Source: a virus. Taken from it: a stretch of DNA of 21,099 bases. Every line of letters begins with the position of its first letter. The first letter of the stretch is position 1. Location: positions 1 through 21,099 of IMG/VR virus record IMGVR_UViG_3300031566_000442. One strand, written 5' to 3'. A model generated the notes under the pieces. That model had not been told where the DNA came from. It saw nothing but the letters and a program-made list of their open reading frames with translations, and made no database searches. The translations under genes and the position numbers were made by a program. Positions 2 through 21,099 of this stretch are shown here, in pieces.

Positions 2-3000
2 GCCGCGGATTTTTTTGCATCTATACCTGAGTTTTTTGATCAAAGATTGTATCAAAAAGGTTACGAAAAAAAGGGAATATTAAAAGGTTTATCTGAAATG
101 CTTTCAGATTCTGCTGATCATATAGATATGGAAGGGTTAGCGCCCGTAAGCAGAAGAACCTTTCAGCAAGGAAAACCTGTATTATACAAAGGAGAAGAAT
201 ATATTGTAGATAAAAATGGACAAGTATTTGACGGAAAAACAAATGTACTTGTTAATGACATACTTAATCCAAAAGAGGTATCCGACATAATAGTAAGGTC
301 AAAAGACGTAACAGAAGAGGTTGCAAATTGGACAGCAGGATCTTTATTACAAGGTTCCACTCAAATGATAACAAATCTTTATGCCTTAATTAAAGCGGGG
401 GGAAAGACAACTAAAGCATTGGGATTAAAGGGCCCTAGAGCAGGAGCTTTTGGTATGGGTATATCTTCATATGCAAGTAGCCTTACGGGTAGTGTAGAGG
501 ATGTTAGAAGCCAATTGGTTGCTTCGGGAATGTCTGAAGATGAGGCCACAGATATAGCTATTAACGCAGGGAATGCAATTGCATCTTTAGATGGTATATT
601 TTCAGGATTAGCAGGATCAAACACAAAACTTTTGACAGGACTGCAAGGTGTAAAGCAAGAAATCATAAATCTTGCAACAACAAAGGGTAAGAAGTTTACA
701 ACTGAGCAATTAAAGAAAAAAGGGTTAGAGTTCGTTAAAGAAAGCGCAAAAGAATTAGGTATAGAAGAAATACCTGTTTTGCTTAGTGAAAGAGGTATCA
801 ATTATTTAGTAAATCAAAGTATAGGCCGAGAAGTTCTAAACCAAAGCGTCACTAAAGCTGATCTTTTAGAAACAGCCGTTCTAACTATTGGAGCAACTTC
901 TGGTCTTGGTGGTAGAAAATTACTTGGTGGAAACAGAAGAGCTGACTTTGTTAGAGTTATAGGAAAAGATATAGATAATCTTCAAGGAACTCTTAATGAG
1001 TTGGTTTTAAATAAAGAGCTTACAAAAGACCAAGCCTACAATGCATATAATGAAATATATAACATGCAGGCAGGCGAGCTCAAAACAAAAGGAACTATCC
1101 TAATGTCTCAAAACGTAGAGGAGGCAGCAGATCTTTTGACGCAAAGAGAAAAGCTAACACAACAAAGAGAGGGTTTAGAAGGACCTCTAAAGGAAGATAT
1201 TGATAAAAGAATTACAGATGTTGATGAGCAGATAAAAGCACTTAAGCAGAGAGATGTAAGTGAAGCTCAGGCAATCATTGATAAAGAAAATAATGTAGAA
1301 TCTAAAACAGAACAAGATGCCAGTACGGAGCAAATCACAATGGAGGAAACTAGCGCAGACACAACCCAAGATACTGAAGAGGTGGTTGAAGGAGTACCCG
1401 GCACAGTACGAGAGTCTACCAGAGAGACTGACACCGAAGTCCAAACCACTCCTGACCAAGAGGCGCAGACAGAAATCAATTCTTTAACTGATACAGAGCA
1501 AGACACAGAGATGAGTGTGAACACAGATAGAGTTAACTCTATTGTGGATGGAATCATCGAAAAGACTCGAGGACGAGGTAAGAGAAGAGGAGATAAGGAC
1601 AATAGATTATCAGAGCAAAAAAATGCTTTAAACTATTTAGAAGGATCACAGGTGTTTAATGAGCAAATGAATGATAGCGAAAGAGAAGCTGTTGTTCAGG
1701 ATTTAAACAAGAAGCTTGGATTAGAGATTCCTTCTCCAACCAAAAGACAAATAGACGCAAAGAAAAAGAAGGATAAAAAGTTTGTAAAAGTTGATGAGTA
1801 CGCAGCTCTAAAAGACCAAATAAAACTCGAGGCAAAAGCTGCTCGTGATGCAAAGAAAGACCAAACAACTAGAAGAAAATCCTTATATGAGTCTATAAAG
1901 AATGTTAGGAAGATGGGCAACATTAGTCTGAATAAGGCTAAGCAACTTATAAAGCAGGTTTCTACAGTTAACCTGAATAACGCCAAAAAAGTACAAGAGG
2001 TTATAGACTATGTAGAAAATGCAGCCAACAATGCTGAGTACGAAGCAAAAGTAAAAAAAGCAAAAGTTATTCAAAAAGCCATAAAGAAAAGCGCTAAAGG
2101 CAAAGAAGCAACATTGTCTGATGCAGCATTGCAGTTTGCAAAAGTAAACCCATCTACTGTAACTGATATTGATGCGTATCTTGAAAATGCACAATCCGTA
2201 AAAGATGGTCTACAAAAAACAAAGAAAACTAAAGGAGGTCTCAAAGTAGCCAAACCTTTTGATGTTGCAAAAATTGATCAGTATAGTAAAACTGAAATAG
2301 AAAACGAAGCCAAAAAGAACTTTCAGCTTGCAAAAGAGTCGTTTGAGGAGCTCACAGGAACAGATCCTGGTGATCTTACATTAGAACAAATAAAAGACGT
2401 TTTAAACACCTACGAAACAACTCCTGAAAAAAGAGCAGATTTTGAAAAAGAAAACGCAGAAGTAATTGATAAGGCTGTAAATAACGCCTTCAATAACACT
2501 AAGATTAATATTAAAGGAAGTATTGAGAGTGGAGACTTGCAGTTAGATGGTGAAAAGAAAGCTTTGATTAGAGGTTTTTTGAATATGGATTTAAGTGTGT
2601 TTAATACTTCTCAAAAAATGGCTGTATTAGATGCGATTGTAAACTTTGAGATGAATCAGTCTACAGGCGGTATGCAATCTATATTAAGCCAATACAAGGG
2701 TGATAAAGGAATGAAGACCTTGAAAAAAGACGGCATAAAATCTATAGAAAAAAGCAGTTGGCTTGGAAGGACTTGGAATAAATATATAGCTACCCTTCCA
2801 AATGTATTTGACCTTATGTTTAAATCACAAGCAAAGGCCAACAAAGTTATGAAGGAAATGGGCTTTACAGACCTTGTAAATGGAGCTAACAAAGCCAACA
2901 AACAAGCCTCTGTGGTTGAAAAAGACTATGCAAAAGCTTTTGATAAAAAGAAAATGCGTGAAGGAAAATACTTTGATGAAAAGAATGATATCGAAAGAGG

Positions 3001-5101
3001 TATTTTAGCTGAGGTTAGAAGGGTTGCTCCTGGAACTGAAGCAGAGCAACAAGCTGAGTTTGAAACAAGTAAAGGGTTGGTAAAAGAAACATATGAAAGA
3101 TTACTTAACAGCAAAGATCCTTCAAATCAAAAAAAGGGCGAGGTAATAAAAGAGGTTTATGACAAGATATTAGCTGACGCTGAAACTATAAACGATGTAG
3201 AGAGTAAAGTTGATCCTGTAAACCTTGAAGGTGTAAATTACATTACTGAGGTTTGGGCAAATGAGTATGAAGCGTTGGCAGATATATCTTTAAATATATA
3301 CAACAGAAACTTAGGAAAAGATATAAACTATACCCCTAGAAGTGTTCAGAAGCTTCAAGCTGAAGACAAGCCTATAGATATTACAGAACCTGCGTTTAAC
3401 CCAGATATGCAGAAAAGAGGTGTTTATGACAAAGAAACGGGAGTAATTAAACCAACTACCAAACCCAAAACACTACCAAAAGGAAGGGTTCTTAATTTAG
3501 GATTTGACAGACAAAACCTAACAAATTACAAGGCAGCAATGACCGATGTATATACAGCTCCGTCAATACAACAGATACAAGGCGCTAGAGATTCCGATGC
3601 ATATAACGATGTTTTGCCAAATGAAAACTCAAGAGAGGTTATTCAGGATAGAATAAATAATTATATAGCAAGTATTAGAGGTGTAACTCAGTTCGAAAAA
3701 GAACAAAGGGAGAATAAGATGCTTGTAAAAGCTATGGATAAGATAGCTACATTTGGTGTTGTTAGGGCGTTAGGAGGTTTAACTCAGCCGTTAAAGCAAA
3801 TGGTTCCTATTTTCAATACAGCAGTAAATGCGGGTGTTGTAAACACATTAAAAGGAGTTCAGTTAATTACACAAAAAGAAGTAAATGATGCTATAAACAA
3901 TTCAGGAATGCCTATTGCAAATAGAGGTGTTCAGTCTCAATCAGACATAGAATCAGTAGATAGTAAAATTGAAAATGTTACTAGAGGAATAGGAGGCAAG
4001 ATTGTAAAGGGTTTTGATAACGCAAATAAAAAGCTTTTAGATGCTACTCTTGTAAAACCTGATGTTGGAACAGCAAGAGCTTCTTTTATAGCGTATTACA
4101 TAGAATCAGAAGCAAAAAGAGGAGTTCCTTCTAACGAAATAGATTGGACTAAGCCATTAAATCAGGAGTCATTAAACTTCGCTCAACAACAGGTAGATAG
4201 ACAGCAAAATGCTTCTGACCAAAACCTTCAAGGTGGGTTGTTTACGAGTCAAAACTTTACAACTCAGTTCATAAGAAAGACAGCGTTTCCTTTTGCAAAT
4301 TTCCTATTAAATCAAAAAACAAGAATGTACGCAGATATTAATACTTTAATAAACAATCCAACAGCTCTTCCGGGTGATAAGAAAAGAGCGGCCAAATCTT
4401 TAGCAGGATTAGGAGTTGAGACAGCTGTGTTTAATTTGTTAGGACTTGGAATATCGTCTATGCTTGCACAGGCCACTCAATCTATTGTTGGTGAGGACGA
4501 GGATGATAAGAGACCTCAATGGGAAAAAGATATGATAGCTAGAGAAGAGGGTGATAAAAGAATTAGAAATCAGGTTAGAGGTAGACTTGGAAACGTATTA
4601 AATGATGTAATCAATCCACTACCTATTACCAATGATCAAGTTTTAAACTCAGCTAATTCTTTAATAGGATTATTTCAAGACGGAGAAAAAGATGGAGATG
4701 CATTTAAGTTTTTTGCAAAAACCGACAAAGGAATGTTAGAGCAATTAGGTGTGTTGGGTATTGGAGGAACAAAAGCAAAGCAGTTAGTAGAAATGATAAA
4801 AATTTCTCAAACAGGAGAGTTTAAAAACTATTATGGATCAACCACAAAGCTTAGCAAAAGCGCGCAAGAAAAAGTGGGGAATACTGCTATTATTTATGCG
4901 TTACATTTAGCGGGCGCTATCCCATTCTCAGAAGTTGGATACATGTCTGAAAGAGCTCTAAGAGACATAAAGAAAATGAAGGAAGCTAAACCTGAAAAGT
5001 TTAAGGAAGAAAAAGACACAAGAAAAACTTTAGACGATGTTGGAAAAAAGAAAGGGTCTAAAATAATTAAATCTAGCAAACTAGGAAAAGGCAAGCTTTA
5101 A
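2..5101 (+). CDS. Giant virion-associated / large polyvalent protein, 5' end outside window
   Basis: The frame is open from the first bases of the window to TAA with no break, giving at least 1699 residues, so the gene starts upstream; the in-frame TTG at 47 is not a convincing start. Near the N-terminus is a Gly/Ala/Ser-rich hydrophobic stretch (about 330-620). A Thr/Glu/Asp/Gln-rich low-complexity linker (about 1300-1540) is followed by a basic RGRGKRRG patch. Long Lys/Glu/Ala-rich, probably helical segments fill 1700-3200. The C-terminal third has apolar segments around LGGLTQPLKQMVPIF and AFPFANFLLNQKTRMYADI, then a Lys-rich tail. This architecture, and the resemblance of the AFPFANFLL region to large polyvalent-protein-associated domains (possibly LPD38), fits very large phage proteins packed in virions or injected with DNA. 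No protease, transglycosylase or polymerase motif was recognised. It is the only + strand gene and probably belongs to the late module. Confidence 0.8.
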   Translation, partial: AADFFASIPEFFDQRLYQKGYEKKGILKGLSEMLSDSADHIDMEGLAPVSRRTFQQGKPVLYKGEEYIVDKNGQVFDGKTNVLVNDILNPKEVSDIIVRSKDVTEEVANWTAGSLLQGSTQMITNLYALIKAGGKTTKALGLKGPRAGAFGMGISSYASSLTGSVEDVRSQLVASGMSEDEATDIAINAGNAIASLDGIFSGLAGSNTKLLTGLQGVKQEIINLATTKGKKFTTEQLKKKGLEFVKESAKELGIEEIPVLLSERGINYLVNQSIGREVLNQSVTKADLLETAVLTIGATSGLGGRKLLGGNRRADFVRVIGKDIDNLQGTLNELVLNKELTKDQAYNAYNEIYNMQAGELKTKGTILMSQNVEEAADLLTQREKLTQQREGLEGPLKEDIDKRITDVDEQIKALKQRDVSEAQAIIDKENNVESKTEQDASTEQITMEETSADTTQDTEEVVEGVPGTVRESTRETDTEVQTTPDQEAQTEINSLTDTEQDTEMSVNTDRVNSIVDGIIEKTRGRGKRRGDKDNRLSEQKNALNYLEGSQVFNEQMNDSEREAVVQDLNKKLGLEIPSPTKRQIDAKKKKDKKFVKVDEYAALKDQIKLEAKAARDAKKDQTTRRKSLYESIKNVRKMGNISLNKAKQLIKQVSTVNLNNAKKVQEVIDYVENAANNAEYEAKVKKAKVIQKAIKKSAKGKEATLSDAALQFAKVNPSTVTDIDAYLENAQSVKDGLQKTKKTKGGLKVAKPFDVAKIDQYSKTEIENEAKKNFQLAKESFEELTGTDPGDLTLEQIKDVLNTYETTPEKRADFEKENAEVIDKAVNNAFNNTKINIKGSIESGDLQLDGEKKALIRGFLNMDLSVFNTSQKMAVLDAIVNFEMNQSTGGMQSILSQYKGDKGMKTLKKDGIKSIEKSSWLGRTWNKYIATLPNVFDLMFKSQAKANKVMKEMGFTDLVNGANKANKQASVVEKDYAKAFDKKKMREGKYFDEKNDIERGILAEVRRVAPGTEAEQQAEFETSKGLVKETYERLLNSKDPSNQKKGEVIKEVYDKILADAETINDVESKVDPVNLEGVNYITEVWANEYEALADISLNIYNRNLGKDINYTPRSVQKLQAEDKPIDITEPAFNPDMQKRGVYDKETGVIKPTTKPKTLPKGRVLNLGFDRQNLTNYKAAMTDVYTAPSIQQIQGARDSDAYNDVLPNENSREVIQDRINNYIASIRGVTQFEKEQRENKMLVKAMDKIATFGVVRALGGLTQPLKQMVPIFNTAVNAGVVNTLKGVQLITQKEVNDAINNSGMPIANRGVQSQSDIESVDSKIENVTRGIGGKIVKGFDNANKKLLDATLVKPDVGTARASFIAYYIESEAKRGVPSNEIDWTKPLNQESLNFAQQQVDRQQNASDQNLQGGLFTSQNFTTQFIRKTAFPFANFLLNQKTRMYADINTLINNPTALPGDKKRAAKSLAGLGVETAVFNLLGLGISSMLAQATQSIVGEDEDDKRPQWEKDMIAREEGDKRIRNQVRGRLGNVLNDVINPLPITNDQVLNSANSLIGLFQDGEKDGDAFKFFAKTDKGMLEQLGVLGIGGTKAKQLVEMIKISQTGEFKNYYGSTTKLSKSAQEKVGNTAIIYALHLAGAIPFSEVGYMSERALRDIKKMKEAKPEKFKEEKDTRKTLDDVGKKKGSKIIKSSKLGKGKL

Positions 5102-5205
5102 TCTTTTTGTTTATCTAAAAGCTGTTGAAGCTTTCTAATTAATTTGAAGTTTGGTTTTTTCTTTAACTTCTCTTCAAGTATTTGTTTTTTAATGTGATCT
5201 TTCAT
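5098..5205 (-). CDS. Small basic protein, 35 aa, unknown function
   Basis: ATG to TAA encodes 35 residues starting MKDHIKKQILEEKLKKK, rich in Lys/Gln/Leu and probably one amphipathic helix. The start overlaps the 3' end of the upstream diphosphohydrolase-like gene by 17 bases. The stop overlaps the stop of the convergent giant gene, both being read from the same TTTAA. The gene would be the last of the leftward operon. No Shine-Dalgarno sequence is seen, only an A-rich leader, as usual in Bacteroidota. Support is limited to position, compactness and composition, so it could be non-coding trailer sequence. Confidence 0.45.
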   Translation of the reverse strand: MKDHIKKQILEEKLKKKPNFKLIRKLQQLLDKQKD

Positions 5206-5479
5206 TTTCTATTTCTTTTTGTAAACATGCTAATGCACGCCACGCTACTTTTGCGGTATGACGAATTCCATCACTATCTATTGTTCCTGCATCAATCAAA
5301 TGTCTAGCAAGAGCATCATAATCATCATTAGATTTATTACGATCCCAATGCAATGGCTTATCAGGGTGGTGTTGTTTGTTTCCTTGTAAGGAAACTCTTG
5401 AAACTTCCATTAATGCATCTGGGAAATACTTAATAACGCCTGTAAATACAGGTCGATTTTTTCTTTCTTCTGCGTTCAT
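5189..5479 (-). CDS. dATP/dGTP diphosphohydrolase-like protein (DUF5664 family)
   Basis: This 96-residue protein starts MNAEERKNRPVFTG. It carries the family-like features GVIKYFPDALMEVSR, then HHPDKPLHWDR, then NDDYDALARHLIDAG and a C-terminal Ala-rich helix. The DUF5664 / dGTP_diPhyd_N family contains phage enzymes (MazZ type) that hydrolyse purine dNTPs to dNMPs; I assign family membership from motif recall and infer the activity. A longer reading from 5566 would add 29 residues, but that stretch belongs in another frame to a membrane peptide whose TAA overlaps this ATG (TAATG), so 5479 is chosen. Acidic and His residues suited to metal binding lie in the HHPDKP and NDDYDA segments. In MazZ systems the enzyme feeds 2-aminoadenine synthesis with PurZ; no PurZ is visible here, so it may simply adjust nucleotide pools. 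Confidence 0.65.
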   Translation of the reverse strand: MNAEERKNRPVFTGVIKYFPDALMEVSRVSLQGNKQHHPDKPLHWDRNKSNDDYDALARHLIDAGTIDSDGIRHTAKVAWRALACLQKEIENERSH

Positions 5480-5580
5480 TAAAATGCCATTCCAACTAAT
5501 AACATTCCGTATAAAACTCCCGCTGACATTGTCAGTATCATAGACCATACTAATACGGCCAACCAATTTATTTTCTTCAT
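5479..5580 (-). CDS. Single-pass membrane micropeptide, 33 aa
   Basis: ATG to TAA encodes 33 residues: a short MKKINW head with two lysines, then an almost uninterrupted apolar stretch (LAVLVWSMILTMSAGVLYG and onward to the C-terminus). This predicts one membrane segment with the basic N-terminus in the cytoplasm. Its ATG follows the phosphoesterase stop by two bases (TAATTATG), and its own TAA shares one base with the ATG of the DUF5664 gene (TAATG). Both junctions are typical of coupled genes in this operon and are the best evidence that it is real. No lipobox or cleavable signal is seen. Function is unknown; a small phage membrane peptide could be a host-envelope modulator, but nothing here proves it. 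Confidence 0.6.
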   Translation of the reverse strand: MKKINWLAVLVWSMILTMSAGVLYGMLLVGMAF

Positions 5581-15485: not shown

Positions 15486-16091
15486 TTAATGAAAAACTAA
15501 CCCAACCTTGTTTGTTTGGTTGAACCATTTAGTTGCGTAAAGGTCTGTGTCTGAAGCATCTACATATCCTGCATCTTTCAAACTCTCCTTACTATCAAAT
15601 ATTTTAGTGTGTCTGTCCACTTCTTTATTTATCATATGTTTTTGTTTCCCTGAATCACTAAATATTATATCATAGTTCTCAGGAAGATCAGCCTTGTACA
15701 TCATATCGACCATGTTTGTGTAGCTATAAAATCGTACATTTAGATTTGCCTTTGCAATTGTTATCCACTTGGCTAGATAACTCCTGGAATAGTAGTCACC
15801 ACTATCGTGTACCCTTACATAATCAGGGCGTTTCTTTTCTATCTCAGTATTCATAGCGTCAATAAACTCTAGCGTCTTACTTAGTTGATACCTCTTCTCA
15901 AATGCAGGTTGCACGTTGCTCCAAACGTACGCACCTTTCTTTGCATAGCAGAACTTGACACACTCGTCAGCCATAGGGCATGTAAGCTTGCCGCTTGCTG
16001 ACTTGTATGCAGGTATTCCAAAATTAAAAACCCTCAAATTGAGGGCTTTACTTGTTTTCTTTAACTTACTGTTTTGTGTTAATAGATTCAT
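15486..16091 (-). CDS. GP88-family protein
   Basis: The 201-residue protein matches the phage GP88 family: KLTCPMADECVKFCYAKKG (Cys38, Cys44, Cys48), a Pro-Ala-Phe-Glu-Lys-Arg segment, then VRVHDSGDYYS (92-101) and RFYSYTN. The three cysteines, in CPxAxxCxxxCY order, could bind a metal or Fe-S cluster. The family is widespread in phages, but its biochemical role is, as far as I know, unestablished. It lies just downstream of the methyltransferase-like gene (18-base gap). Within its first codons is a terminator-like hairpin, which might limit expression. Confidence 0.75.
   Translation of the reverse strand: MNLLTQNSKLKKTSKALNLRVFNFGIPAYKSASGKLTCPMADECVKFCYAKKGAYVWSNVQPAFEKRYQLSKTLEFIDAMNTEIEKKRPDYVRVHDSGDYYSRSYLAKWITIAKANLNVRFYSYTNMVDMMYKADLPENYDIIFSDSGKQKHMINKEVDRHTKIFDSKESLKDAGYVDASDTDLYATKWFNQTNKVGLVFH
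16021..16045 (-). terminator. Terminator-like hairpin inside the GP88 gene
   Basis: Read leftward, CCCTCA and TGAGGG form a six-base-pair stem with loop ATT (16031-16045), followed at once by TTTTTAATTT. This has the form of an intrinsic terminator but lies within codons 16-24 of the gene. It could act as an attenuator, or be a by-product of conserved codons. Confidence 0.35.
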
Positions 16092-16109: not shown

Positions 16110-16715
16110 TTAAATTATTGTCCATTGTTTTGCCATTGCATTAGCAATACCTGGGAAAGTTTTGCTTCTTACCTTTGACCTTTCCTGTTTACTCATTCCC
16201 CAAGCTTTAGAGTACCAAGCGGGCATTGTTTTACCACTATCAAACCTTACTCTTGGTTCAGGAGTCACAACATTTGTGGCTTTCAAATCAGGTAGGTTTT
16301 TTAGCCAAAGACATGTTCTTTTTTCATATGGATCACCAAACTCATAAGGTTGAATTATTTGGTTTGGCTTTCTGTATTTAGAACTCATTATACCCACAGG
16401 GTTTTCTACTGCTATTTTATCTATAGGAGCATTAATAAGCTTCATGAAAAAGTCTATGCCTTGTTGTTGTCTTCCGTCTTTTTGTTTTTGCTCGAACCAT
16501 CTTGCGCCACTAGAAGCTAAATGAGTGCACGGTGGAAACGCAATCATCATATCATATTGATAATTATATGCATGAGATATTACATCTCCTTTTATGTGCC
16601 ACTCAGGATGCCCCCCACTACAGTCAAGTATATCGCAACTATATGCTTCATGACCAAGTTTTCTAAGGGCTTTAGTTACTGTTTGGCTTTCCTCGCAAGC
16701 TACTAAAACTACCAT
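16110..16715 (-). CDS. C5-cytosine-methyltransferase-like protein
   Basis: The 201-residue protein begins MVVLVACEESQTVTKALRKLG, a compact SAM-binding motif-I-like strand-turn-helix, followed by an acidic strand end (SCDIL). The FPPCTHLASSG segment (60-70) keeps the Pro-Cys of the cytosine-C5 methyltransferase active site, and VENPVGIM (103-110) resembles the ENV motif. The recognisable target-recognition region is short, so the protein is about half the usual length. It may be a small phage DNA methyltransferase or a related enzyme on another target. A longer start at 16745 overlaps the upstream gene more, so ATG at 16715 (seven-base overlap) is preferred. Phages use such enzymes to evade restriction, an inference here. 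Confidence 0.6.
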   Translation of the reverse strand: MVVLVACEESQTVTKALRKLGHEAYSCDILDCSGGHPEWHIKGDVISHAYNYQYDMMIAFPPCTHLASSGARWFEQKQKDGRQQQGIDFFMKLINAPIDKIAVENPVGIMSSKYRKPNQIIQPYEFGDPYEKRTCLWLKNLPDLKATNVVTPEPRVRFDSGKTMPAWYSKAWGMSKQERSKVRSKTFPGIANAMAKQWTII

Positions 16716-17167
16716 GATGATTGATAATAGTAACTTACAGACCAATCTTCTTCTTTGTTTATCTCCTCTTCTAAAACCCTGACTGTGTCTGCTAGGTCGG
16801 CATAGTAATAGTCATCGACCTCACTTGAACCAAAAAAGAACCCCTGTGTTGGCGCTAATAACTCTGGAGTCTTGTTGATTACTACTTGCTCGCATAGATT
16901 TTTTAGCTCTATCAGTTTATCTATTTCTACATAAGCTTTCTGACATTGGTCTATTCCGTCTTGACAGTTTTTTACAAACCAACCATGAATGGCGTTTGCT
17001 TTTCTCCAATACATAACCTCTTCAACCACTCCAGATATTCTATCAGTTTTGATTGATGGGTGGAGTTCTCCACCTTTTTTAACATTTACTTCATGCCTTT
17101 CTTCAGGCGTTTGATGATCCCATTTTTTGACATAAGTTTCTTTTGTCAAATACATGTCTAATCCCAT
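16709..17167 (-). CDS. Conserved MGLDMYL-type protein, unknown function
   Basis: The 152-residue protein begins MGLDMYLTKETYVKKWDH, a start seen in a conserved but uncharacterised protein group of phages and bacteria. It continues with a Trp/Tyr-rich middle (VMYWRKANAIHGWFVKNCQDG) and an acidic C-terminal helix. A start 41 codons upstream is possible but reads through a probable non-coding terminator region, so this ATG is chosen. The family has no known activity, to my knowledge. It overlaps the methyltransferase-like gene by seven bases. Confidence 0.7.
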   Translation of the reverse strand: MGLDMYLTKETYVKKWDHQTPEERHEVNVKKGGELHPSIKTDRISGVVEEVMYWRKANAIHGWFVKNCQDGIDQCQKAYVEIDKLIELKNLCEQVVINKTPELLAPTQGFFFGSSEVDDYYYADLADTVRVLEEEINKEEDWSVSYYYQSSW

Positions 17168-17328: not shown

Positions 17329-17709
17329 TTATTGTGCATCTAATAGTTGTATTGTTACGTTTTCCCATTTACCCCCACGCATACTTTCGTTTACAAGGAA
17401 GTCTATTCTCATAGTCCAACGCTTATTCATTCTGTCCTGTACAGTATACACTCCATTCATTTGGCCTGCACCTGTTATCATAACCTTACATCCAAACACA
17501 AACCCCAATGGCTCAAGGTCACGAGATACTGCGATCCACCTATGCCCCGCGGGGTTGTTTGGGTTGATGTGTTTGCCACTTGCTGTAACAAATGGCGTGC
17601 TATCTGTCTGCTCTTCTACTGCGTGGTAGATAGTAGCAGTTACTTGTTCTCCCATTTTGGGAACTTCCATGATGAGTGTGAACAATCCTAATATCATTAC
17701 TGTCTTCAT
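17329..17709 (-). CDS. 3D-type / RlpA-like double-psi beta-barrel protein
   Basis: The 126-residue protein starts with a short hydrophobic MKTVMILGLFTLIM, a possible uncleaved signal anchor. It then carries VTASGKHI, HRWIAVSRDLEPLGFVFG, KVMITG, GVYTVQDRMNKRW and MRIDFLV. This series matches the 3D (Asp-Asp-Asp) and RlpA double-psi barrel families, which include murein-active lytic transglycosylase-like domains; the Asp of VQDRM and of RIDF correspond to the conserved acidic positions. It may act on host cell wall during infection or lysis, but lies among early genes, not a lysis cassette. Its ATG overlaps the upstream stop (ATGA), and a candidate terminator follows the gene. Confidence 0.7.
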   Translation of the reverse strand: MKTVMILGLFTLIMEVPKMGEQVTATIYHAVEEQTDSTPFVTASGKHINPNNPAGHRWIAVSRDLEPLGFVFGCKVMITGAGQMNGVYTVQDRMNKRWTMRIDFLVNESMRGGKWENVTIQLLDAQ

Positions 17710-19663: not shown

Positions 19664-20683
19664 TTAAAAGTTAAATAATTCTTTTTCGTCTCCTATAATT
19701 TCTCCGTAGCATATGTCACAATACAACTCATCGTAGTCTCTGACTGGCTCGGGGTTTGCACAACTACAAAACTCACTCACATGATCCCAACCTTTTACAT
19801 AAGAGTCGTTGTATGTTCTTGTATCCCAATCATCAACGTATACATGCTGAGCATATGTTTTGTGGTATATACCCGAGTCTTCTACGGTGTCATTGAAGTA
19901 TACATATGGCATGAACACATTACCTTTCTCTGTCTGTACCTCTACACACTTACGCTCATACCAACGAGGGTGTCCTTCAAGTGCATCAATGTTAGGCAAT
20001 TGCGTCCTGTTGTCTACAAGGAACAGGTCAATCTCTACATTGTGACCGACACCTGGCTTGTTGAGTAGGTATGGTAATCCATTGATAATGAGTGGATACT
20101 TCTCTACTGTGTAGCTCTTGCCTACATATGTAGCGTTTTTAAGGTGTGCATGATAATTGCTGTACCCTTTCTTAAGAGTACCATACACGCCTATCAAAGT
20201 CTTATCAAGCACATTATCTTTGCTGTAATGTATTTTGTTTTTGGTAATCCAATCCTCTTTGTTGTATAGCTGAAAGGTTTTCTTCTTGAGGTTGGCTGTC
20301 ACAAATCTACAGTTGTTCATCTCCAACACTTCTTTCCATCGCTTGCGTGGTAATTCTGACAGGATCTCTGCCATGTGCTGAGTGTCTGTCTTTTTCTTGT
20401 TACCAAGATTGTAGATTGTGCCATTCTGAAACAGCACCTCGTTGTCATTGATGTTGAATGGGTGGCAGTTCTTTCTGTTCACAGCACCGACTGTCGCATA
20501 CCTGAAGTGTGCAATGTATGGTCGCTGAGTCTTGAGAACCATGAACTCATCACTATCGTGATAGGTAATGTTCCACTTGTCCAACCATAGAACTCCCAAT
20601 CCATGAGGGTTCTTGATTGCTGATGTCATCAATGTTTCTGTCTTGATGAGCTTCTTGTTGTTCTTTACTATAATAATACACAT
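19664..20683 (-). CDS. Fusion: class II glutamine amidotransferase + gamma-glutamylcyclotransferase + zinc ribbon
   Basis: Three modules are readable in this 339-residue protein. Residues 1-150 are a class II glutamine amidotransferase-like domain: Cys2 after the initiator Met as the nucleophile, HGLGVLW, the hallmark HFRYATVG followed by NxHPF (59-76), and FQNGTI. Residues 163-300 match the AIG2/gamma-glutamylcyclotransferase fold: GVYGTLKKGYSN (165-176), PGVGH, and DALEGHP (Glu236, the expected catalytic acid) with YERKCVEV. The end carries CSC (306, 308) and CDIC (322, 325), a likely zinc ribbon. Both enzymes handle gamma-glutamyl or glutamine amide chemistry. The gene follows, by two bases, a probable amidoligase C-terminus, matching predicted phage amidoligase clusters. 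Substrate unknown; all key residues appear intact. Confidence 0.8.
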   Translation of the reverse strand: MCIIIVKNNKKLIKTETLMTSAIKNPHGLGVLWLDKWNITYHDSDEFMVLKTQRPYIAHFRYATVGAVNRKNCHPFNINDNEVLFQNGTIYNLGNKKKTDTQHMAEILSELPRKRWKEVLEMNNCRFVTANLKKKTFQLYNKEDWITKNKIHYSKDNVLDKTLIGVYGTLKKGYSNYHAHLKNATYVGKSYTVEKYPLIINGLPYLLNKPGVGHNVEIDLFLVDNRTQLPNIDALEGHPRWYERKCVEVQTEKGNVFMPYVYFNDTVEDSGIYHKTYAQHVYVDDWDTRTYNDSYVKGWDHVSEFCSCANPEPVRDYDELYCDICYGEIIGDEKELFNF

Positions 20684-20685
20684 AA

Positions 20686-21099
20686 CTAATCTTCTTCTCT
20701 TTTATCGTTAATAAATTCCCCTACTAGACATCCGACATCTTCTGCAATAAGATAATGTCTGAACTGTCTCGCCACATTGTATACGTGGTCAACCTTGTCC
20801 TCGTTGCCATTGTACATTTTAAGCACAATGTGTCTGACTTTCTGCAGGAACACCTCGAATGATACTCGTCTTGTGAATGAGTGGTACATCATCTTGTACA
20901 ACAAGTCATACCTAAGCTTGAGTTGTGTTGTGTTCTTGACGGCTGATGGCAGTCTGAACTCTACTCTACTACCCTTGACATTTACAGGAGAATACTTTGA
21001 GTTGTTCTCCTTCTTCGCAGGTTTGTTTTGATTGCAGTAGCTACGCTTCAGTCTGTACCTGTATAGTGCATACATAAGTGCAAGTGTCTGTCGCATCTT
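20686..21099 (-). CDS. Probable phage amidoligase (COOH-NH2 ligase), C-terminal part only
   Basis: The frame is open to the right edge of the window, so the true start may lie outside; the first in-window Met (21096) is not secure. The visible 137 residues contain LALMYALYRYRLKRSYC, then a KYSPVNVKGSRVEFRLPSAV segment, then KLRYDLLYKMM. The RVEFRLPSAV stretch resembles the Glu-x-Arg motif near the C-terminus of amidoligase-type (PF12224-like) enzymes, which join a carboxyl group to an amine using ATP. The N-terminal catalytic part would be beyond the window, so the call rests on one motif and on the following amidotransferase-cyclotransferase gene. The alternative is a hypothetical phage protein. 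Confidence 0.5.
   Translation of the reverse strand, partial: KMRQTLALMYALYRYRLKRSYCNQNKPAKKENNSKYSPVNVKGSRVEFRLPSAVKNTTQLKLRYDLLYKMMYHSFTRRVSFEVFLQKVRHIVLKMYNGNEDKVDHVYNVARQFRHYLIAEDVGCLVGEFINDKREED

What the first reader, a model, noticed from the sequence alone, without database searches (positions are those of the whole stretch)
19664..21099. Probable phage amidoligase system: amidoligase C-terminus next to a fused glutaminase-type amidotransferase, gamma-glutamylcyclotransferase and zinc ribbon
The fusion keeps the Ntn nucleophile Cys2, the HxRxATxG signature, the cyclotransferase YGTL motif and catalytic Glu236, and ends in four cysteines. Directly upstream is a protein tail with an amidoligase-like EFR motif. 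Comparative genomics (the amidoligase families described by Iyer and colleagues) predicted that phages carry amidoligase, class II amidotransferase and cyclotransferase genes that make or remove gamma-glutamyl-type peptide modifications. A single-chain fusion with a terminal zinc ribbon is a distinctive form. The substrate (host peptidoglycan, a protein tail or a small metabolite) is unknown. This is the best candidate for an undescribed system in the window.
Basis: partly seen in the sequence, partly recalled or inferred. Interest (0 to 1): 0.78.

Follow-up and report, generated by a model that had tools for sequence, protein, structure and literature searches.

The report
Phage two-gene gamma-glutamyl amide module
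Viruses of Bacteroidota bacteria carry a conserved pair of genes, one predicted to build an unusual amide bond and one fusing two enzymes predicted to break such bonds, which looks like a compact form of a known phage cassette thought to remodel the host cell wall, although nobody has yet tested what it acts on.

Summary
Window 19664-20683 (-) encodes a 339-aa chain: Ntn-type glutaminase domain (GlmS-like), gamma-glutamylamine cyclotransferase (GGACT) and a four-Cys tail. The catalytic residues C2, R61, N87, G88, D100, YGTL and E236 are invariant in 64 of 64 aligned relatives; a CxC/CxxC...CxxC tail is present in 62. The gene 2 bp upstream is cut by the contig end. Its full-length relatives (up to 75% identical) fold like glutamine synthetase and YbdK, match phage 'amidoligase' models, and keep G-E-E, D-S-E, H, R and ExR, but no Pfam model recognises them. 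The pair is a real module: all 73 related loci with enough upstream sequence carry both genes on the same strand. The kind is already known: podoviruses such as RIO-1 and LUZ24 carry a 'peptidoglycan modification cassette' with the same activities as separate genes. Here it is cut to two genes, without the ATP-grasp and COOH-NH2 ligase, with glutaminase and cyclotransferase fused and a divergent amidoligase. Most likely it writes and trims gamma-glutamyl amide bonds early in infection of Bacteroidota. The substrate is untested; peptidoglycan is the leading guess. New variant of a known kind, moderate interest.

The parts
19664..20683 (-). Fused glutaminase - gamma-glutamylamine cyclotransferase - four-Cys tail protein, 339 aa, complete
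20210..20683 (-). Ntn/class II glutaminase (GATase) domain, residues 1-158; nucleophile Cys2 (codon 20678-20680), R61, N87-G88, D100 invariant in 64/64
   Evidence: PF13522 E 9e-6; GlmS glutaminase 1xff Z 11.4, 156 residues; conservation
19838..20206 (-). GGACT/AIG2 cyclotransferase domain, residues 160-282; YGTL 167-170, catalytic E236 (codon 19976-19978)
   Evidence: PF06094 E 1e-17; 1vkb/3jub Z 19; profile match to 1vkb E 2e-16
19709..19768 (-). Four-cysteine tail CxC...CxxC (C306, C308, C322, C325), zinc-ribbon-like; relatives have CxxC...CxxC
   Evidence: 62 of 64 aligned sequences keep it; metal binding is inferred; model confidence in this stretch is about 62-73
20686..21099 (-). C-terminal 137 aa of the divergent amidoligase (glutamine-synthetase fold), 5' end cut by the contig end; EFR at 20953-20961; its stop is 2 bp before the fusion's ATG
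   Evidence: 75% identical to the end of L031:4718-5998 (426 aa); fold of that protein

Best explanation
The two genes form a compact phage module for making and unmaking gamma-glutamyl amide (isopeptide) bonds. (1) Inferred from fold: the amidoligase uses ATP to activate a glutamate-type side-chain carboxylate as an acyl phosphate and joins it to an amine, as glutamine synthetase and YbdK do. (2) Inferred from fold and invariant residues: in the fusion, Met1 is removed so that Cys2 becomes the N-terminal nucleophile that hydrolyses glutamine (a gamma-glutamyl amide), giving glutamate and ammonia for the ligase or trimming its product; the cyclotransferase domain releases gamma-glutamyl caps from amines as 5-oxoproline, with E236 as general base. 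(3) Chemical constraint from the known GGACT reaction: the cyclotransferase needs a gamma-glutamyl group with a free alpha-amine, so its substrate should be a terminal gamma-Glu cap on an amine, not the N-acylated D-Glu inside an intact stem peptide. (4) Inferred from gene order: it is expressed with the replication genes, that is early. (5) By analogy only: the target is the host cell wall or its precursors, altering crosslinking, superinfection or lysis. Steps 1-2 are supported by sequence and models, 3 rests on family knowledge, 4-5 are inference.
For: Invariant catalytic residues in all three enzymes. Folds. Pair found together in 73 of 73 testable loci, the ligase's end 1-11 bp from the fusion in 12 of them; the other 9 loci have under 2 kb upstream. 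Phage C75C1 has the same fusion (37% identical) near a different, true PF12224 amidoligase (E 3.5e-30), so the pairing survives a change of ligase subfamily. Other podoviruses have amidoligase, class II GATase and GGCT in one cluster. The published reading of those clusters is cell-wall modification. Downstream of the fusion come a DnaA-like HTH, Sak annealing protein, exonuclease and primase in most loci.
Against: No biochemical test of this family was found. No PF12224 match for the ligase. The loci are related phages, and the distance correlation between fusion and ligase (r 0.80) is no higher than with replication genes (0.82, 0.79), so there is no specific co-evolution signal. The peptidoglycan target rests on analogy. 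In most relatives small genes separate the two by 0.5-5 kb.
Confidence: 0.5

Rival explanations
1. Glutamine-dependent amidation: the glutaminase domain feeds ammonia to the glutamine-synthetase-like ligase, which amidates a carboxylate of a cell-wall precursor (like MurT/GatD or AsnB-type amidation); the cyclotransferase only clears by-products.
For: Class II GATase domains normally feed a partner synthase; all GlmS-type glutamine-binding residues are invariant; the partner has the glutamine synthetase fold. Methylophilales phage MEP402 has a GATase next to a large gene, and its paper reports amidoligase plus GATase without mention of a cyclotransferase.
Against: The GATase is fused to the cyclotransferase, not to the ligase, and the genes are often kilobases apart; no ammonia channel can be shown.
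Confidence: 0.23
2. The same chemistry acts on something other than the wall: a host protein lysine, a polyamine, or phage DNA.
For: Predictions for related ligase families include protein and metabolite targets (cited); the four-Cys tail and the Cys-rich beta-repeat N-terminus of the ligase in the window's clade (5-12 Cys) could bind a macromolecule.
Against: No target is known, and nothing in the neighbourhood points to one.
Confidence: 0.15
3. Breakdown only: the fusion degrades host gamma-glutamyl compounds to recycle Glu and ammonia for nucleotide synthesis, and the ligase works independently.
For: Located in the replication module; the reference cassette was also discussed as resource recycling.
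Against: The ligase is retained in every testable locus, which pure recycling does not need.
Confidence: 0.1

Closest known systems
Putative peptidoglycan modification cassette of podoviruses RIO-1, HP1, LUZ24, phiEco32, CW02 (PMC5498523; PMC11945000)
   Same: Amidoligase, class II glutamine amidotransferase and gamma-glutamyl cyclotransferase, lying among replication genes
   Different: Here two genes instead of about five to seven; GATase and GGCT fused with a four-Cys tail; no COOH-NH2 ligase (PF14395) and no confident phage-type ATP-grasp found in records of fusion-bearing phages; ligase not recognised by PF12224
Phage C75C1 (OQ984151) fusion plus PF12224 amidoligase
   Same: Same fused GATase-GGACT, amidoligase upstream on the same strand
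   Different: No four-Cys tail; its amidoligase is a canonical PF12224 member only 18% identical to the window clade's
OM43 phages MEP401/MEP402 (PMC10580990)
   Same: Amidoligase (PF12224) plus GATase pair
   Different: GATase not fused to GGACT; no cyclotransferase mentioned in the passages read
Clostridium prophages with phrog_2443 amidoligase and phrog_2520 GGCT (PMC11318856)
   Same: Amidoligase plus GGCT in one prophage
   Different: Separate genes, temperate phages, different host phylum
Human/mouse gamma-glutamylamine cyclotransferase (3jub, 1vkb)
   Same: Fold and catalytic Glu of the middle domain, 34% identity
   Different: Stand-alone enzyme acting on gamma-glutamyl-epsilon-lysine

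Membership tests
Pfam PF06094 GGACT | Profile score above cut-off, YGTL motif, catalytic Glu | tested here: met
   65.1 bits against 22.8; YGTL and E236 in 64/64; Z 19 to 1vkb
Class II (Ntn) glutamine amidotransferase domain | N-terminal Cys, Arg/Asn-Gly/Asp glutamine pocket, Ntn fold | tested here: met
   C2, R61, N87, G88, D100 in 64/64; GlmS glutaminase Z 11.4 over 156 residues
Pfam PF13522 GATase_6 | Score above the gathering cut-off | tested here: not met
   26.2 of 27 bits, lower in relatives
Pfam PF12224 Amidoligase_2 | Profile score above the gathering cut-off | tested here: not met
   No match in 58 members nor in the window and 15 records of related phages; of the fusion-bearing phages only C75C1 matches
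Glutamine synthetase-like amidoligase fold | GS/GCS fold with conserved acidic strand motif, His and Arg | tested here: met
   GS Z 9.9 over 164 residues and YbdK Z 9.1 over 184; BFVD matches with names are mostly amidoligases; G191, E193, E195, D225, E231, H272, R338 invariant in all full rows; hhalign to phage amidoligases E 2e-4 but probability only 47
Podovirus peptidoglycan modification cassette | Contains COOH-NH2 ligase (PF14395) | tested here: not met
   None in 16 records of fusion-bearing phages; found in all 4 records with the split cassette. The window itself is a fragment
Podovirus peptidoglycan modification cassette | Contains an ATP-grasp ligase | tested here: not met
   No credible match in fusion-bearing records (only E 6e-4 and 2e-3 inside frames of 2467 and 3115 aa); E 1e-40 or better in all four split-cassette records, which however supplied rows of the profile
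Podovirus peptidoglycan modification cassette | GATase and GGCT near an amidoligase, among replication genes | tested here: met
Podovirus peptidoglycan modification cassette | Modifies peptidoglycan | not testable with these tools
   Needs muropeptide analysis; presented as hypothesis for the reference cassettes in the papers read

The most novel reading that the evidence does not exclude
A self-contained two-gene writer/eraser that attaches and removes gamma-glutamyl caps on amines of a specific host or phage macromolecule (for example protein lysines), rather than bulk cell-wall editing, with the Cys-rich parts acting as the targeting modules.
Probability: 0.12. Interest if true: 0.8.

Novelty: new variant of a known kind. 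Interest (0 to 1): 0.42.

Why it matters
The larger cassette has been noted in many phages for over a decade, and the papers read here present its role only as a hypothesis. A two-gene version with all active sites clear is the smallest form found here to test: two proteins, defined catalytic residues, and a clear small-molecule assay (5-oxoproline, glutamate, ADP). It also shows that an amidoligase family widespread in phages that probably infect Bacteroidota goes unrecognised by current profile libraries, and that records annotate the fusion only as a cyclotransferase.

Tried and rejected
Defence system: no PADLOC match for the fusion or for the window clade's ligase. Cellular or prophage origin: only one of 395 Bacteroidota genomes has the fusion, and the two MAG contigs with it (L109, L110) carry the same phage gene order; plasmids give only partial matches, those listed all to the cyclotransferase part. 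The MAG contigs end 0.6-1.2 kb upstream, so the absence of the ligase there says nothing. Specific co-evolution by distance correlation: not distinguishable from core genes. The structural matches do not test the four-Cys tail or the beta-repeat N-terminus of the ligase. The original Iyer et al. 2009 paper and the phage Marvin paper are not held, so their claims are taken from citing papers; the RIO-1 paper (Hardies et al. 2013) was likewise read only through citing papers. A literature search for the fused form found no description of it, but most subscription papers are not held. A first attempt to search the Bacteroidota class failed for want of a genome handle and was redone at phylum level.

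Full report
WHAT IS THERE. The window is a 21,099-base IMG/VR virus record, very likely a fragment, since relatives are mostly 53-64 kb. At 19664-20683 on the minus strand lies a complete 339-aa ORF; 2 bp before its ATG ends a frame open to the contig end (20686-21099, 137 aa). Pfam gives GGACT (PF06094, E 1e-17, residues 166-266) and a sub-threshold GATase_6 (E 9e-6) for the ORF, and nothing for the truncated tail.

THE FUSION. Relatives were found in viral contigs: 14 close ones and, with an alignment, 399 matching stretches of which the best 80 were kept. In 64 aligned sequences (relatives 40-70% identical to the window) C2, H59, R61, N87, G88, D100, Y167-G-T-L170, E236 and R244 are invariant. 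By established GlmS knowledge these first ones are the nucleophile, the glutamine carboxylate-binding Arg, the oxyanion Asn-Gly and the amine-binding Asp; YGTL and the Glu are the cyclotransferase motif and base. The AlphaFold2 model (pLDDT 88.2) places residues 159-282 on mouse GGACT (Z 19.2, 2.1 A, 34% identity) and 2-160 on the GlmS glutaminase domain (Z 11.4, 156 residues), the aligned ranges starting at Cys2 and at GlmS residue 1. A profile search of solved structures returns only GGACT/AIG2-type chains. The tail has CxC...CxxC in the window's clade and CxxC...CxxC elsewhere, in 62 of 64 sequences; L076 and L110, and also C75C1, lack it, so it is common but not essential.

THE UPSTREAM GENE. 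Full-length relatives are about 270-600 aa. None of 58 aligned members matches PF12224; six weakly match phrog_2443 'amidoligase enzyme' (best E 0.0024). The model of L031:4718-5998 (pLDDT 91.4), whose C-terminus is 75% identical to the window's tail, matches glutamine synthetases (Z 9.9, 164 residues, 3.5 A) and YbdK, a carboxylate-amine ligase of the GCS group (Z 9.1, 184 residues). Among viral structure predictions, most of the named matches are 'Amidoligase enzyme' (from E 3e-12). Profile-profile comparison with seven phage amidoligases gives E 2e-4, probability 47, with the motifs in register: GxExE, DxS..E, H, R..C, ExR. G191, E193, E195, D225, S227, E231, H272 and R338 are invariant in all full members. 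The second His of the PF12224 proteins is replaced, by Thr in most. So it is an amidoligase-fold protein by structure and motif, but outside the Pfam family as drawn. The window's clade adds a roughly 165-190-residue beta-repeat N-terminus with 5-12 cysteines in most members.

THE TWO GENES GO TOGETHER. Of 82 loci examined, 73 carry the ligase upstream on the same strand, 1 bp to 4.9 kb away (12 at 1-11 bp); the other nine have under 2 kb of upstream sequence. Some loci are near-identical contigs (77 of the fusion proteins are distinct), and all come from related phages, so this is conservation in a lineage, not 73 independent events; the pairwise-distance correlation with the fusion (0.80) equals that of replication genes such as dnaA-HTH and exonuclease (0.82, 0.79). 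Yet apart from the genes of the downstream replication block few neighbours are as constant: an upstream HTH gene is in 55 loci, GroEL in 36. An outside case is phage C75C1, where the same fusion stands near a canonical PF12224 ligase.

SURROUNDINGS AND HOST. Order in relatives: ligase, small variable genes, fusion, DnaA-like HTH, Sak annealing protein, PD-(D/E)XK nuclease, a small conserved protein, BT4734-like primase; the window has the annealing protein, nuclease and primase in the same order. The window's primase is related to those of Flavobacterium, Polaribacter, Nonlabens, Cellulophaga, Maribacter and Bacteroides phages, and two Bacteroidota MAGs hold such phage contigs. A Bacteroidota host and early expression are inferred.

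COMPARISON WITH WHAT IS KNOWN. Phages Bjorn, BroderSalsa, Vibrio 1.208.B and T4S1-k141_470236 carry GGCT, class II GATase, amidoligase and ATP-grasp and/or COOH-NH2 ligase as separate neighbouring genes, and LAh_8 and MW202615 similar sets. [quoted passage not shown] OM43 phages have an amidoligase-GATase pair (PMC10580990), Clostridium prophages an amidoligase with GGCT (PMC11318856). In records of fusion-bearing phages neither PF14395 nor a credible cassette-type ATP-grasp was found, while the split-cassette records showed both. The module is therefore a reduced, fused variant; it fails two features of the full cassette and is not filed as a member.

MECHANISM. Most likely the ligase forms a gamma-glutamyl amide with ATP and the fusion hydrolyses glutamine and removes terminal gamma-glutamyl groups. 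Because cyclotransferases of this family need a free alpha-amine on the glutamyl group (family knowledge, not tested here), the eraser should act on gamma-Glu caps on amines such as Lys, DAP or polyamines, not on D-Glu within an intact stem peptide. Whether the glutaminase feeds ammonia to the ligase, supplies Glu, or trims products is open. The cell-wall target is analogy.

VERDICT. The finding is real and its reading is largely right; the novelty is the compact fused layout and an amidoligase family missed by profile libraries, not a new kind of system.

Noticed in passing
relatives of the window, e.g. L016 1178-2806, and about 4.6 kb upstream of the fusion in 36 loci: Many related phages encode GroEL (MW202828 also a GroES-like chaperonin 10) on the opposite strand near this module.
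   Followed up: no
window 5189-5566 (-): A 125-aa stand-alone dATP/dGTP diphosphohydrolase N-terminal domain (PF18909, E 7e-10), possibly linked to nucleotide pools or base modification.
   Followed up: no
window 17329-17709 (-); L003 9097-9489: Small secreted-looking protein (phrog_21574, unknown function) that lies directly after the fusion in L003; by eye it recalls 3D/RlpA-type cell-wall domains, but Pfam finds nothing.
   Followed up: partly
window 2-5101 (+): Protein of at least 1,699 aa without any Pfam or PHROG match, on the opposite strand from the replication genes; probably a virion protein.
   Followed up: partly
window 15486-16091 (-): GP88 family protein (PF17338, E 4e-37) of unknown function beside a phrog_757 DNA methyltransferase (16110-16745).
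   Followed up: no
L031 4718-5998, residues 1-185: The ligase of the window's clade has an extra N-terminal region of repeated beta hairpins with 5-12 cysteines in most members, absent in most relatives; its fold was not searched by itself.
   Followed up: no
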